A stretch of 5,298 nt of DNA, taken from positions 1 to 5,298 of the forward strand of contig JAKLKB010000217.1 of NCBI GenBank assembly GCA_023150835.1. The letters run 5' to 3'. Position numbers and translations under genes: made by a program. Origin of the DNA: Myxococcota bacterium (GTDB lineage: Bacteria > Myxococcota_C > UBA6777). Positions within the stretch are counted from its first letter, which is position 1, and the number at the start of each line of letters is the position of its first letter. The notes beneath the pieces are model-generated. The model saw only the letters and a program-made list of their open reading frames with translations. It did not search any database and was not told the DNA's origin. This document shows positions 464-5,298 of the stretch, in pieces.

Positions 464-781
464 ATGAAGGGGTGGGTGCGCGTGGCCCAAGAGTCGGAGG
501 TGATCGCCGCAGGCCGTCTCGTGGTTGAGATCGGCGATGCGCGGATCGCGCTGTTTTCTATCGCAGAGCAACGCGGGATCTACGCGATCGATGATCGTTG
601 CCCGCATGTGGGGGCTTCGCTTGCGGGTGGAAAAGTCGAAGGGCTGGTGGTTTCGTGTCCGTGGCATCATGCGCGCTTTAGTCTTACGACGGGGGCGAAC
701 CTGTCCCCACCCGACTTTGGGCCTGTGCGTGCGTACCCTGTGCGCGTCGAAGAAGGCTACATCGAGATCCTTTTGCCATAA
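464..781 (+). CDS. Rieske-type [2Fe-2S] ferredoxin
   Basis: This is a 105-residue small soluble electron carrier of the Rieske family. The cluster ligands are all present: C46-x-H48 (in CPHVG) and C65-x2-H68 (in CPWHHARF), separated by 16 residues, as in the ferredoxin partners of ring-hydroxylating dioxygenases and the small subunit of NAD(P)H nitrite reductase. There is no signal peptide or membrane segment, so it should act in the cytoplasm. The length matches a complete stand-alone Rieske ferredoxin. The ATG at 464 is preceded by GGGGG at 455-459, and an in-frame TAA sits immediately upstream, so no longer start exists. No oxygenase, reductase or nitrite reductase gene lies in the window, so its redox partner is unknown. 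Family identity is near certain; the pathway is not. Confidence 0.93.
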   Translation: MKGWVRVAQESEVIAAGRLVVEIGDARIALFSIAEQRGIYAIDDRCPHVGASLAGGKVEGLVVSCPWHHARFSLTTGANLSPPDFGPVRAYPVRVEEGYIEILLP

Positions 782-801: not shown

Positions 802-1782
802 TCACAAAGGAAGGTGTTTTCCAATGTAGCCCACGAATATCTCTTTTTTCTGTGGAAGAGGGAAGAAGTGAATGCGGCGACCATTTCCCAATTTTAGGTG
901 CCAGAAGCATTCGTAGGTGCTGCCTTCTGGGGCAGAAAATCTTCGTTTCGAGCGGAGATGTGGGTTGTTTTTGACGCTATCTGATTCGTCTGATGCGTCT
1001 TTTAATGTGGGGTGTTGGATATCGAATTCGCCTGCTTGTCTTTGCTCTGCGTAATGGTTGAGATCCGCTAACCTGTCAACGGTTTGACCGAACAATTTCC
1101 CTCCGCCCATTTGCGAGATCGATTGTTCGCTTTCTTTGCTCCAGATCAAATAAGGAAAAAATCGGTCAAATTGTCCAGATAAATCTCTACCGATCTGTGG
1201 GGGAGGGAGGCAGTTGTTTTGCAAAGATTCTTTGAGTGCATCGATATGCGCTTCTTTGCTGGCGTGGTGGATCTTGGCTTCTTCTGTGTGGAGTTCGCCT
1301 TGTTCGCTGAAGCGTTGCAACGTTGCGGTGATGCAGTGTGTTTCCCACCGTTCGGCGGTTGGGAAGCTGACCGCGACACCTCGAAACGCATGCGCGGCAG
1401 AGAGACCGGCGGCGCTTCTCTGATCGAGCGAGATCTCCGATTCGGCGTGGCGTGTGGCGTCACCGTGTTCGGAGGATGGATCGTAAATTGGTGTTCTTGT
1501 TGCGAAACTAAGAAGAAAATCTCTTTTTCTCTGTTCGAGATGGTGGATCGACTCTTGGAGCGGATAGTCTTTCGCCAAGCGCGTTTCTGCATCGTAAAAG
1601 GATACGCTGCTTCTGAGCAGGAGACTGTTCCAATAACGACCCCTTGTGTCTTTCAACCAAGTATCGAAAGCCAGCAGCACCGAGACGAATGATTCCATTT
1701 GAGAGTGAGCGGCTTGTTTGTCGGTCTGCTGTTCACAATCTCGTAAGCAAAGTTCGTTAAAGGCGAGATTAAGTGCGCTCAT
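802..1782 (-). CDS. Unknown third protein of the DUF262/ATPase module
   Basis: This 326-residue protein is not from a family I can name. Its ATG overlaps the stop codon of the ATPase gene (ATGA at 1782-1779), and AAGGA lies 9 bases upstream inside that gene, so the two are translationally coupled and probably work together. There is no signal peptide or membrane helix. The N-terminal third is helical-looking and charged. A middle part (about 125-185) contains AHAFRGVAVSFPTAERWE and then an acidic/basic stretch with IHHASKEAH. A polar, low-order stretch (about 255-285) leads into a compact C-terminal block with WHLKLGNGRRIHFFP (294-308) and VGYIGKHLPL (317-326), a beta-rich, basic and aromatic ending that resembles a small nucleic-acid-binding or toxin-like fold. 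That reading is inference only. I cannot assign catalytic residues. The gene ends 20 bases from the convergent ferredoxin gene, with no clear terminator between. Confidence 0.82.
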   Translation of the reverse strand: MSALNLAFNELCLRDCEQQTDKQAAHSQMESFVSVLLAFDTWLKDTRGRYWNSLLLRSSVSFYDAETRLAKDYPLQESIHHLEQRKRDFLLSFATRTPIYDPSSEHGDATRHAESEISLDQRSAAGLSAAHAFRGVAVSFPTAERWETHCITATLQRFSEQGELHTEEAKIHHASKEAHIDALKESLQNNCLPPPQIGRDLSGQFDRFFPYLIWSKESEQSISQMGGGKLFGQTVDRLADLNHYAEQRQAGEFDIQHPTLKDASDESDSVKNNPHLRSKRRFSAPEGSTYECFWHLKLGNGRRIHFFPLPQKKEIFVGYIGKHLPL

Positions 1783-2942
1783 CGTCGAGCGTCCTTTTGG
1801 GCGGCAGCTTCTGCACGCAACAAGTCGCCAAGCCCTTCTGTGATCTCGTCAAAAAAGCCTTTGGGCCAAGGTTCGATGTGCCCTGCGTGGTCGATTTGAG
1901 GAGATTCTACCCAAGAGAAGCTTTCTCCTTCCTCGGACACGCGCTCGATAAAGTGAAGGGCGACTTTTTCGGGAGGTAACCCGCCTTGGGCGACTTCTAA
2001 GCGGATGCCGTTGAGGATGTGATCGCTGTGTGATTCGACGAGGATCTGGATGCCGACGGAGGCAGCTTTTGCGAGCAACCGCCCAAGCTGCCGCTGGCCG
2101 CGTGGATGTAAGTGAGCTTCTGGATTCTCGATGATCACCAGATCGTTTGGTTTGGAGGACAAAAGCGCGACGATCACGGGAAGGGTGTAGGTGATCCCGA
2201 AGCCGACGTGGGTGGCTCGATATCTCTTGGTCTCTGTTCCGCCCTTCACATGGAAAGCATAGCGCATTTGGATTTGATCGAGGCTGGGGTGTGCTTCCAA
2301 GCGCAAGCGTGTGCCGGGGCATACTTCGGACATCCAACCTTCCACTTGATACTTTAATTCATTTCTGCCTTCACCTGGATAAAGTAGCTCTTTTCTTTGG
2401 ATTTTGTCTTCTCCGTAAAGAGACAGAAAGTGCGCTGTAAATTCGCCGCTGGTTCCAAGATTTCTTTGCGTTGAAACCATGAGATCAGAAAACCCATAAG
2501 AGACGCGAGGACCAATGCGTTCGGCATGGAGCGTTAGGCAAGAGGAGTCCGAGAAAAGACTCAAACCTCGGAGCGATTCTTCATTCGGGCAAGAAAGTAG
2601 TTCCAAGTAGCGACTTTCGAGCTTTTCTTTCGAGAAGCTAGGGATCGAGAAAACCCATGCAGCTTCGCCATTTTCCCAAGACAGGCCGAGTACGCCCTCG
2701 TCTTCGACCGCATATTCGTAACGCACATCTTCGACTGTTCCCAATTTGGCAAGATCGCCCTGCAAGGAAAGCCCGGGTTTGGGGAGGCTTTTTTGTTGGT
2801 AGGACTGGCGCAAAACGAGAAGAGCCTGAAGGATCGAGCTTTTGCCTGCACCGTTTTGGCCCGAAAGCAAAGTCAAGGCACCAAGGGAGAGTTCTTGATC
2901 TACGAAAGATTTCCAATTTTTTAATCGAATGCTTCGCAACAT
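1779..2942 (-). CDS. DUF3696-like AAA/ABC-type ATPase (SMC-like)
   Basis: This 387-residue P-loop ATPase belongs to the SMC/RecF/OLD-like group. The N-terminus MLRSIRLKNWKSF is the usual first strand. Walker A is GQNGAGKSS (28-36). A signature-like VGFGITYTLP lies at 246-255, Walker B is LVIIENPEAHLHP (268-280) with E272 as the probable catalytic acid, and the switch region is VESHSDHILNGIR (302-314). The C-terminal KGFFDE (361-366) is typical of DUF3696 ATPases. There is no long coiled coil, TOPRIM or HNH nuclease domain, so any effector activity should come from a partner. The frame could start at a TTG at 3011, but the ATG at 2942 has a good ribosome binding site and gives the canonical first strand. 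It follows the DUF262 gene by 10 bases and overlaps the next gene by 4. ATPases of this type occur beside DUF262 proteins and in anti-phage modules. Confidence 0.95.
   Translation of the reverse strand: MLRSIRLKNWKSFVDQELSLGALTLLSGQNGAGKSSILQALLVLRQSYQQKSLPKPGLSLQGDLAKLGTVEDVRYEYAVEDEGVLGLSWENGEAAWVFSIPSFSKEKLESRYLELLSCPNEESLRGLSLFSDSSCLTLHAERIGPRVSYGFSDLMVSTQRNLGTSGEFTAHFLSLYGEDKIQRKELLYPGEGRNELKYQVEGWMSEVCPGTRLRLEAHPSLDQIQMRYAFHVKGGTETKRYRATHVGFGITYTLPVIVALLSSKPNDLVIIENPEAHLHPRGQRQLGRLLAKAASVGIQILVESHSDHILNGIRLEVAQGGLPPEKVALHFIERVSEEGESFSWVESPQIDHAGHIEPWPKGFFDEITEGLGDLLRAEAAAQKDARR
1792..1796 (-). promoter_or_regulatory. Ribosome binding site inside the ATPase gene
   Basis: AAGGA on the - strand lies 9 bases before the ATG at 1782, within the last codons of the ATPase gene. 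With the ATGA stop/start overlap it supports coupled translation of the ATPase and the 326-residue protein. Confidence 0.6.
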
Positions 2943-2945
2943 AAG

Positions 2946-2952
2946 TTTCCCT
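2946..2952 (-). promoter_or_regulatory. Ribosome binding site that fixes the ATPase start
   Basis: On the - strand AGGGAAA lies directly after the TAA of the DUF262 gene, with 6 bases between AGGG and the ATG at 2942. It favours this start over the upstream TTG at 3011, which would lie inside the DUF262 gene. Confidence 0.7.
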
Positions 2953-4188
2953 TTATTTTTTTGAGAGATACGCAACCAAGGCCAACGTGCCGATGCCAAG
3001 CAAGCCACCAACGAGCAAGTCTTGTTGTTGTTTTTCTTCGATGAAGGTTTTTTCTTGCTCTATTTTTACTCGAAGGCTTTCAATCAAGCCGTCAAGGTAC
3101 GCAGAGGAAGCCTCTTCAATTTGCCCCATCCACTCGAAAAGCCGATCTTCGTTTTTTTGATTTGTGGGCGGAGTGGTTTGGGCGATCTCCATTAAAGCCA
3201 AGCCGACCCCTTCTCTTGTGTGGGCTGCTTTGGGCAAATGGGCGATCAACGCTTGTTGTTGGAGTGTGTCCTCTGCTTTTTGAAGAAACGAACGTACTTG
3301 TGTGTTGGAGGCCAGTTCTCGTGCGATTTGATTGGGGAAGGCAGTGGAGTGGGCTTGCAAGCGTCGAATGATCGCATATTTGGCTTGGCGAGCGGAGCCT
3401 TTTTCGATGGTGTGAAGCGTCCAGCGGCTTTCGAGTATCTTTCTTTGGAGGGGGCGTGGCAATTCATCGTAAGATTTGCCTTCGTATTGCGGGAAAAATT
3501 CGAGTCCTTGCAAGGTTAGAGATTTGTCGACGAGAAAGGAACGGCAGGATTGGACTCTTTGTTCTCCGTCATAAAGCAGCCAGTGATCGTCCTGTTGAAC
3601 GCCGAGCCAGATCGGCGGCAGCGGGAGTGCAAGCATCAAAGATTCGATCCATCGGCTTTGTGCGATTGCAGACCAGAGCGTGTTGGTTTGCGACTCTGGA
3701 AAAAGCTCAAAGCGCGTCAACCATTTTTTTCTTTTGATATGTTCCATGATCTCGCCGAGTGGGATCAGGCGCGTTTCAAAACGTAATTCAGCGAGGTCCT
3801 CTCTATCGACGGGTTCTGTGGGCTGGATCGGCTCTTGGGGGGAAGTGGATAATTGCAATTGCTCAAAAGCGTTTTGCAGGGCGGACAGAGACTGTTCCTT
3901 GTCGAGGTTCGTTGTGGGGTCTTGCAATGTGCGAAGTGTGTCGATGAAATATTCAAGGCGATCCAATGGCTCGCTTTGGAGCATCTTTGGATTGGAAAAG
4001 CTTTCGCGAATCAGAGAGATGAATTTTTCTTGGATTTTTTCGCTGCGTTTTTTTAGTAGTGTAAGAGGCTCTTTCTTCAAGGTTTTTCTCACGTTCGCGA
4101 GGTACGTGGTCGCTGAGGGGTCCCGTCCGTGGATAAGGAGCAGGCATGAAAGATCGCAGAACGTAGCCTGAGCAAGCGGGAAAAGCAA
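2953..4188 (-). CDS. DUF262-type protein with C-terminal membrane anchor
   Basis: Numbered from the TTG at 4188 (411 residues). Residues 140-300 resemble the DUF262 (GmrS/ParB-like) fold: RWIESLMLALPLPPIWLG (179-196) matches the usual LI-SILLG-PIP stretch, and YDGEQRVQS (206-214) is the DGQQR motif with Glu for the first Gln. The upstream FQR motif is degenerate (FPESQTNTLW, 163-172). No HNH/DUF1524 nuclease domain follows. Instead comes a Gln/Glu/Lys-rich helical stretch (about 350-389) and a hydrophobic segment LLVGGLLGIGTLALVAYL (391-408) ending in SKK, which looks like a tail anchor. The start is uncertain: the first ATG is at 3984 (residue 69), other options are GTG 4092 and TTG 4080, and none has a clear Shine-Dalgarno site. 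The DUF262 domain is intact with any of them. The gene begins 15 bases after the SUMF1-like gene and in the same frame. Confidence 0.85.
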   Translation of the reverse strand: MLFPLAQATFCDLSCLLLIHGRDPSATTYLANVRKTLKKEPLTLLKKRSEKIQEKFISLIRESFSNPKMLQSEPLDRLEYFIDTLRTLQDPTTNLDKEQSLSALQNAFEQLQLSTSPQEPIQPTEPVDREDLAELRFETRLIPLGEIMEHIKRKKWLTRFELFPESQTNTLWSAIAQSRWIESLMLALPLPPIWLGVQQDDHWLLYDGEQRVQSCRSFLVDKSLTLQGLEFFPQYEGKSYDELPRPLQRKILESRWTLHTIEKGSARQAKYAIIRRLQAHSTAFPNQIARELASNTQVRSFLQKAEDTLQQQALIAHLPKAAHTREGVGLALMEIAQTTPPTNQKNEDRLFEWMGQIEEASSAYLDGLIESLRVKIEQEKTFIEEKQQQDLLVGGLLGIGTLALVAYLSKK

Positions 4189-4203
4189 GGGATAGTGTTG
4201 GGG

Positions 4204-5298
4204 TCAAGGCTCTTTGACGCAGCGGAAACCCACCCAACTAAGCCCTTGGCGAAGTTCGATTCGCCCGCGCCAATCGAGTGGATGTGCTTGACTAAAGGCA
4301 GAGCCTCCTTTGATCAGACCGTCACGCATCATCTCGGCGACATTTCCTGCAAGCATCTGAACTCCAAAGGGGCTGATATCGCCAAGTGGTCGATGGATCG
4401 GAAGAAGAGAAGGCACTTGAACGCCATTGCGCTGTACGGGAAAGCACCAGTGCAGGTTAGCGCGCTGGCAGTCGTGTTTGTTTTCGCCCCAAGGATAGGG
4501 GCGTTTGGGGAAGGGATTGGGGCCGTTTGGCAAGCGAAGAGAGCCACGCGCAGCGATCATCCATTGCGCCTCGGTGGGGAGGGTCATGTTTCGCCATCGA
4601 CAAGCGGCTTGCGCATCTTTGACACGCAAACGATCGCGAGGAAGGCTCCAAGACAAAGCAAAGAGATCGTCGAGTGGTGGGCAGCGACCTGCCACCGCAC
4701 AAGCCGCATAATAGGCCCGATCTGCTTCGTCTCGGTCGATCGAAAAAGGGGCGACTTGTTGGAGCCGTTCTTTGCCGTCGTAGGTGATCCAGACTTCGCC
4801 CGAAGGGATCGGTATCTGTGGGATGTTCGGCGGGACGGATGGGGTGGCATCGCGTAGAGGCTCTTGGCAAAAGGGAGCGAGCGTTGCTCCCCCGCGTTGC
4901 AAGAGCCGACAGATGTGGACCAATGAGGCGCGATAAAGAGGCTCGGGGGTGTTTTGGGCGACACGCAACAGATCGATCCAGACCATCGCTTCCAAGATCT
5001 GCAAAAAAGGCGCATCGGTGGGCAAGATCGCAGCGGTTGGGGGAGGATCGGGGAGGATGATATCTTTGGGGAGGTGAGCGAGTAGGCGGGGCGGCTGATC
5101 GGCGGTTTTGGCGAAGAGGGCGGTGTTGTTGAAAGAAATTAGCGTACGCAAGCGAAAGCCTGCTGGAGCGGGATGATCGAAAGAAAAAGACTCGGGCAGG
5201 CGAGGTTGTTGCGAGGCAGCAGGAGAAAAATGGGTAGGAGTCGGATCTGCCGATGGGATGGGGGACTTGGGGGACGAATGACTCGAATGCTTTGAGTT
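4204..5298 (-). CDS. SUMF1/FGE-like domain protein, C-terminal part (cut by edge)
   Basis: The frame is open to the right edge, giving 364 residues; a TTG at 5151 is the first possible start, but the codons before it are all sense. The first 45 or so residues are rich in Ser, Pro and His, like a disordered linker. The C-terminal 200 residues are an FGE-sulfatase (SUMF1) domain: LPTEAQWMIAARG (240-252), YPWGE (268-272), SPFGVQMLAGNVAEM (309-323), KGGS (330-333) and GFRCVK (357-362). After KGGS, where formylglycine-generating enzymes have two catalytic cysteines (CHRSYC in human FGE), this protein has SQAHPL, so sulfatase activation is unlikely and a binding or structural role is more probable. 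In several phyla such domains sit at the C-terminus of membrane or Ser/Thr-kinase signalling proteins. The missing N-terminal part could be a kinase, but that is a guess. It is the first gene seen of the - strand operon. Confidence 0.88.
   Translation of the reverse strand, partial: NSKHSSHSSPKSPIPSADPTPTHFSPAASQQPRLPESFSFDHPAPAGFRLRTLISFNNTALFAKTADQPPRLLAHLPKDIILPDPPPTAAILPTDAPFLQILEAMVWIDLLRVAQNTPEPLYRASLVHICRLLQRGGATLAPFCQEPLRDATPSVPPNIPQIPIPSGEVWITYDGKERLQQVAPFSIDRDEADRAYYAACAVAGRCPPLDDLFALSWSLPRDRLRVKDAQAACRWRNMTLPTEAQWMIAARGSLRLPNGPNPFPKRPYPWGENKHDCQRANLHWCFPVQRNGVQVPSLLPIHRPLGDISPFGVQMLAGNVAEMMRDGLIKGGSAFSQAHPLDWRGRIELRQGLSWVGFRCVKEP

What the first reader, a model, noticed from the sequence alone, without database searches (positions are those of the whole stretch)
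802..4188. Three-gene DUF262 / ATPase / unknown-protein module, candidate defence system
The DUF262 protein, the DUF3696-like ATPase and a 326-residue unknown protein are packed with a 10-base gap and a 4-base ATGA overlap on one strand. DUF262 (GmrS, BrxU) and SMC-like ATPases are recurrent parts of restriction-like and anti-phage modules, but no standard nuclease domain (HNH, TOPRIM, REase) is visible in any of the three, so the effector would be new or unrecognised. The function is inference; the gene order and the motifs are seen.
Basis: partly seen in the sequence, partly recalled or inferred. Interest (0 to 1): 0.72.

Follow-up and report, generated by a model that had tools for sequence, protein, structure and literature searches.

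The report
Divergent Menshen anti-phage defence operon
The three genes are a bacterial anti-virus defence operon of a type already named Menshen, whose third protein is predicted to be a toxin-like RNA cutter; what stands out here is an unusual first protein that has lost most of its usual nucleotide-binding signature and gained a greasy, membrane-type tail.

Summary
The trio is real and is a Menshen (NsnABC) defence system, not an undescribed one. PADLOC models hit all three proteins in order: NsnA 5e-35, NsnB 4e-108, NsnC 1e-57. A detectable A-B-C order is found at 68 of 80 NsnB relatives from many phyla, and a deposited Vibrio phage record labels the same trio Menshen. The architecture also equals the predicted 'ptuXYZ' operon (PMC11980606), a paper that does not mention Menshen. 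The 'unknown' 326-residue protein has a C-terminal RelE/YoeB-type RNase fold (VIA Z 8.6, 84 residues). E266, H295, R303 and H/K323 are nearly invariant, and four relatives carry a clear YoeB Pfam domain there. So the effector is most likely a toxin-type RNase. NsnA is the unusual part: in the window and its sister species it has lost two of three DUF262 motifs (QR to QT, FxxxN to IxxxQ) and ends in a hydrophobic tail seen in none of 60 relatives, yet is under purifying selection (dN/dS 0.27). The NsnA start is probably GTG 4092, not TTG 4188. Verdict: new variant of a known kind; moderate-low interest.

The parts
2953..4092 (-). nsnA: divergent DUF262 (ParB/Srx fold) protein, 379 aa from GTG 4092; keeps DGxQR, lost QR and FxxxN motifs; hydrophobic C-terminal tail (residues 359-377)
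   Evidence: PADLOC NsnA 5e-35 over residues 107-308 of the 411-aa ORF; fold match to BrxU Z 9.2 and SspE 6.4; motif table and hydropathy; start from frame comparison with L005
1779..2942 (-). nsnB: OLD/PtuA-like ABC-type ATPase with DUF3696 C-terminus, 387 aa, no TOPRIM detected
   Evidence: PADLOC NsnB 4.2e-108; Pfam AAA_15, AAA_21, DUF3696; Walker A, Walker B region (E272) and H305 conserved; family-invariant N245 is H here
802..1782 (-). nsnC: two-domain effector candidate, 326 aa; N-terminal domain with weak PIN-like resemblance (about 1-190) and C-terminal RelE/YoeB-like domain (about 207-326)
   Evidence: PADLOC NsnC 1.1e-57; AF2 pLDDT 89; RelE superfamily matches up to Z 8.6; E266/H295/R303/H323 conserved
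4093..4203 (-). intergenic leader upstream of nsnA, strongly conserved with the sister species; presumed promoter region
   Evidence: pairwise alignment with L005; promoter role is inference

Best explanation
The operon is a Menshen (NsnABC) anti-phage system. NsnB, an OLD/PtuA-like ATPase, and NsnA, a DUF262 ParB/Srx-fold protein, most likely form the sensing and control part. NsnC carries a RelE/YoeB-type RNase domain on a PIN-like adaptor domain, held inactive until infection is sensed, and then cleaves RNA (most likely mRNA on ribosomes) so that the infected cell stops growing. In this lineage NsnA has lost two of the three DUF262 motifs, so it probably no longer runs a normal NTP cycle, and it may be anchored to the membrane by its C-terminal tail. 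Shown by computation: gene order, family membership, co-occurrence, fold, motif losses, purifying selection. Inferred: the RNase activity, the inhibition and its release, the membrane tail, and the loss of NTP hydrolysis.
For: PADLOC NsnA/NsnB/NsnC. An NsnA relative next to 77 of 80 NsnB genes and an NsnC relative next to 70. Trio labelled Menshen in phage record PQ189377.1; trio beside brxL/pglZ on an Acinetobacter plasmid. NsnC model: the top 26 VIA rows are all RelE-superfamily chains, Z 8.6 to 6.1, followed by two multidomain proteins at 5.5 and unrelated folds at 5.1 or less. PF06769 YoeB at 2e-16 to 8e-21 in four NsnC relatives that share the N-terminal domain. Conserved E266 (49/51), H295 (51/51), R303 (51/51), H/K323 (50/51). 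NsnA core resembles BrxU and SspE. dN/dS: A 0.27, B 0.12, C 0.19. A review says that mutation or deletion of the DUF262 gene abolished Menshen protection (PMC10952713).
Against: The window NsnC matches no Pfam model itself, and Foldseek alone gave no match below E 0.001. A profile comparison of extended-form and YoeB-form C-termini was not significant. The NsnA C-terminus is poorly predicted (pLDDT about 45). The motif losses in NsnA and N245H in NsnB could mark a system that is drifting rather than specialising, though dN/dS argues against decay.
Confidence: 0.75

Rival explanations
1. The operon is a decaying Menshen system: NsnA lost its DUF262 motifs because defence is no longer selected, and the trio is on its way to becoming pseudogenes.
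For: Loss of near-invariant residues in NsnA (FQR to SQT, N246 to Q, GG to HS, E256 to I) and of the family-invariant N245 in NsnB; higher dN in the NsnA C-terminal half.
Against: All three frames are open in two species; dN/dS is 0.27, 0.12 and 0.19; the DUF262 core is nearly identical between the species (dN 0.007); the upstream leader is conserved. NsnC and the NsnB catalytic motifs are intact.
Confidence: 0.15
2. NsnC acts as a structural or DNA/gyrase-targeting protein (ParE-like) rather than as an RNase, and another protein of the trio provides the effector activity.
For: RelE-fold proteins include ParE gyrase inhibitors (established knowledge); ParE chains are among the fold matches.
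Against: The nearly invariant E, H, R, H/K set in the RelE-like domain and YoeB-type domains in relatives point to RNase activity. NsnA and NsnB show no nuclease domain in Pfam.
Confidence: 0.2
3. The locus is a housekeeping operon linked to the FGE-sulfatase-like or Rieske gene beside it, not a defence system.
For: The same flanking genes lie next to it in the sister species (L005).
Against: The trio is absent from the other three genomes held for the family. Elsewhere it lies in unrelated settings, on plasmids and in a phage. In L005 the FGE gene overlaps an mnmC-like gene and is separated from nsnA by a longer, non-conserved gap.
Confidence: 0.02

Closest known systems
Menshen (NsnABC), anti-phage system of Millman et al. 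2022
   Same: Same three protein families in the same order and strand, with short gaps or overlaps; all three hit PADLOC Nsn models
   Different: NsnA hits its model only over the DUF262 part (residues 107-308 of the ORF), lacks two of three DUF262 motifs and the family C-terminus, and ends in a hydrophobic tail; NsnB has H for an invariant N at 245
ptuXYZ (Gerdes 2025, PMC11980606)
   Same: DUF262 protein, PtuA-like ATPase, then a PIN-like plus YoeB-related two-domain protein
   Different: That paper does not mention Menshen; its table of sequences could not be read here, so identity of the two systems rests on architecture and on NsnC relatives with a YoeB domain
BrxU / GmrSD and SspE (DUF262-DUF1524 enzymes)
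   Same: NsnA core has the same ParB/Srx-type fold (Z 9.2 and 6.4) and keeps DGxQR
   Different: No DUF1524 nuclease domain found; QR and FxxxN motifs lost
YoeB / RelE / HigB toxins
   Same: C-terminal fold of NsnC; conserved E, H, R, H/K residues
   Different: Sits behind a PIN-like domain, has an extended loop with an extra conserved His, and has no separate antitoxin gene; control presumably by NsnA and NsnB
Septu PtuA, PARIS AriA and OLD-type ATPases
   Same: NsnB shares the ABC-type ATPase core
   Different: NsnB has a DUF3696 C-terminus and no detected TOPRIM

Membership tests
Menshen (NsnABC) | NsnA, NsnB and NsnC homologues, one operon, in that order | tested here: met
   PADLOC 5e-35, 4e-108, 1e-57; gap 10 bases and 4-base overlap
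Menshen (NsnABC) | Full-length NsnA with the usual C-terminal region (common to relatives; not a stated requirement of the system) | tested here: not met
   PADLOC match only 107-308 of the ORF and 23-214 of 385 model positions; C-terminal conserved residues replaced
Menshen (NsnABC) | Protection against phage | not testable with these tools
   needs experiment
DUF262 / GmrSD_N (PF03235) | Score above Pfam gathering cut-off | tested here: not met
   30.5 and 27.9 bits against 33.2, although all 62 aligned NsnA proteins match at E 0.01 or better
DUF262 / GmrSD_N (PF03235) | ParB/Srx fold like BrxU | tested here: met
   BrxU Z 9.2, 134 residues, rmsd 3.3; SspE 6.4
DUF262 / GmrSD_N (PF03235) | QR, DGQQR and FxxxN motifs (named in PMC4619093) | tested here: not met
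   QT, DGEQR and IxxxQ in the window and L005; intact or nearly so in the other 60
RelE/ParE superfamily (NsnC C-terminus) | RelE fold | tested here: met
   VIA Z 8.6, 84 residues aligned of an 86-residue chain, rmsd 2.6; first 26 rows all RelE superfamily; Foldseek alone weak
RelE/ParE superfamily (NsnC C-terminus) | Match to a RelE-superfamily Pfam model | tested here: inconclusive
   None for the window; PF06769 at up to 8e-21 in four relatives
RelE/ParE superfamily (NsnC C-terminus) | Conserved active-site type residues | tested here: met
   E266, H295, R303, H/K323 in 49 to 51 of 51 sequences, window included; that they form the active site is inference
RelE/ParE superfamily (NsnC C-terminus) | RNA cleavage | not testable with these tools
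   needs experiment
OLD nuclease | TOPRIM domain after the ATPase | tested here: inconclusive
   No TOPRIM model among Pfam matches of NsnB; C-terminus is DUF3696; its structure was not predicted
ptuXYZ | DUF262, PtuA-like ATPase, PIN-like plus YoeB protein | tested here: inconclusive
   Architecture agrees; the paper's own sequences could not be compared

The most novel reading that the evidence does not exclude
A Menshen variant in which NsnA has given up the nucleotide cycle of DUF262 proteins and become a tail-anchored membrane scaffold, so that a RelE-type RNase is triggered from the membrane, for example at phage DNA entry.
Probability: 0.2. Interest if true: 0.55.

Novelty: new variant of a known kind. 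Interest (0 to 1): 0.33.

Why it matters
The mechanism of Menshen is listed as unknown in a 2026 review (PMC12926258). Linking it to ptuXYZ and to a RelE/YoeB-type RNase domain with four conserved residues gives a directly testable effector. The window's NsnA is a natural experiment on which DUF262 motifs a Menshen system can lose.

Tried and rejected
Sequence search of NsnA and NsnC against PDB chains found nothing useful. Foldseek of NsnC against PDB and viral models gave no match below E 0.001. Profile comparison of extended and YoeB-type C-termini was not significant. An empty-site comparison failed, because FGE-like and Rieske relatives in the other genera lie in unrelated surroundings. 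No close relatives of the window NsnA were found in viral contigs. The phylum holds only five genomes here, so the spread of the variant could not be tested further. PIN-like resemblance of the NsnC N-terminus is weak (Z 3 to 3.7) and is not relied on. The housekeeping-operon reading was rejected for lack of co-occurrence. The original Menshen paper was not held, so what is said of its experiments comes from a review.

Full report
Observation. The window is a whole contig (G000:C189) of a 7.5 Mb draft genome. Its sister genome, G001 (= L005, MAG Myxococcota KLAP109), carries the same trio between the same neighbours. The three minus-strand ORFs, the 10-base gap and the ATGA overlap are as described. 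The TTG start at 4188 is doubtful: against L005 there is a one-base length difference just upstream of GTG 4092, so only the frame from GTG 4092 onward is shared. NsnA is then 379 aa, close to most relatives.

Identity. PADLOC gives NsnA, NsnB and NsnC for the three proteins, that is, Menshen. A genome scan with NsnB returned 80 relatives in cyanobacteria, proteobacteria, Bacteroidota, Bacillota, archaea and others. Without pre-selection for the partners, 77 have an NsnA relative and 70 an NsnC relative next to them, 68 both; several of the rest are at contig ends. Plasmid relatives are annotated DUF262/DUF3696; one lies beside BREX genes. A Vibrio phage record names the three genes Menshen NsnA, NsnB and NsnC. 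The three other genomes held for the family lack the trio. This is the accessory, mobile distribution expected of defence. A 2023 review records that mutation or deletion of the DUF262 gene abolished Menshen protection (PMC10952713).

Effector. The NsnC model is confident (pLDDT 89). Residues 207-326 align with RelE/YoeB/HigB/ParE toxins: Z 8.6 over 84 residues of an 86-residue chain, and the first 26 rows are all of this superfamily. Four relatives with the same N-terminal domain carry a clear PF06769 YoeB domain in that place. Among 51 extended-form sequences (window included, sister left out), E266 is kept in 49, H295 in 51, R303 in 51, and H or K at 323 in 50. In the alignment with the YoeB-type forms, E266, R303 and H323 fall at or near the E, R and H that from established knowledge form the YoeB active site (E46, R65, H83); this correspondence was read by eye and a profile comparison of the two forms was not significant. 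Other relatives have different C-termini: L062 resembles the end of a CARF_DUF2103 protein and L056 is shorter. So the C-terminus seems to be an exchangeable effector module on a shared N-terminal domain. A 2025 paper described the same architecture as ptuXYZ, with a PIN-like domain lacking catalytic residues plus a YoeB-related domain (PMC11980606); it does not mention Menshen. I infer that the two names denote one system.

The unusual part. GmrS-type DUF262 proteins share three motifs: QR, DGQQR and FxxxN (PMC4619093). In 62 aligned NsnA proteins the pattern is almost uniform. Only the window and L005 depart from it: QR is QT, DGLQR is DGEQR, and FxxxN is IxxxQ; the GG and QE positions that follow are also changed. 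The DUF262 core still models like BrxU (Z 9.2). In BrxU, Q101A and R102A of DGQQR still bind but do not hydrolyse the nucleotide (PMC8565348); both positions are kept here, so loss of the NTP cycle is probable but not certain. The usual C-terminal region is replaced, and the last 20 residues form the most hydrophobic stretch of the set (mean hydropathy 2.04), resembling a tail anchor. NsnB has H where the other relatives have N at 245. The genes are nevertheless under purifying selection, so decay is less likely than specialisation. Low dS in the 5' part of nsnA (0.06 against 0.2 to 0.39 further on) may reflect recombination.

Mechanism. Best-supported reading: NsnA and NsnB sense infection and control NsnC; NsnC cuts RNA and stops growth. 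Gene order, families, fold and conservation are computed; activity, control and trigger are inferred.

Verdict. A genuine defence operon of a known kind, with an effector class already proposed in print under another name, and a lineage-specific NsnA variant that is the only new element.

Noticed in passing
window 4204-5298, minus strand: FGE-sulfatase-like protein (PF03781, 3.8e-11), cut by the contig end; in the sister genome it overlaps an mnmC-like oxidoreductase gene and is further from nsnA, so it is probably not part of the defence operon.
   Followed up: partly
window 464-781, plus strand: Small Rieske [2Fe-2S] ferredoxin gene, 92-93% identical in the sister genome, convergent with nsnC.
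   Followed up: partly
L062:8059-8940, L078:3478-4305, L056:8142-8873: NsnC relatives with other C-terminal modules: L062 (checked) matches the end of a CARF_DUF2103 model, L078 has a similar-looking C-terminus, L056 is shorter; suggests effector swapping in Menshen.
   Followed up: partly
window 2208-2210 (NsnB residue 245): The ATPase has His where the other relatives have Asn in the NVGFG motif, in the same lineage where NsnA lost its DUF262 motifs; the two changes may be linked.
   Followed up: no
window 3447-4092 against L005: Synonymous divergence is several times lower in the 5' part of nsnA than in the rest of the operon: possible recombination or extra constraint.
   Followed up: no
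G000:C61:11729-12409, G000:C225:16732-17676, G000:C44:13725-14045: Three further DUF262 proteins above the Pfam cut-off in the same genome, in open frames of 607, 712 and 168 aa.
   Followed up: no
L128 (PQ189377.1) 3096-6994: A Vibrio phage with integrase and repressor genes carries a Menshen trio next to a predicted type II methyltransferase, between the integrase and the repressor.
   Followed up: no
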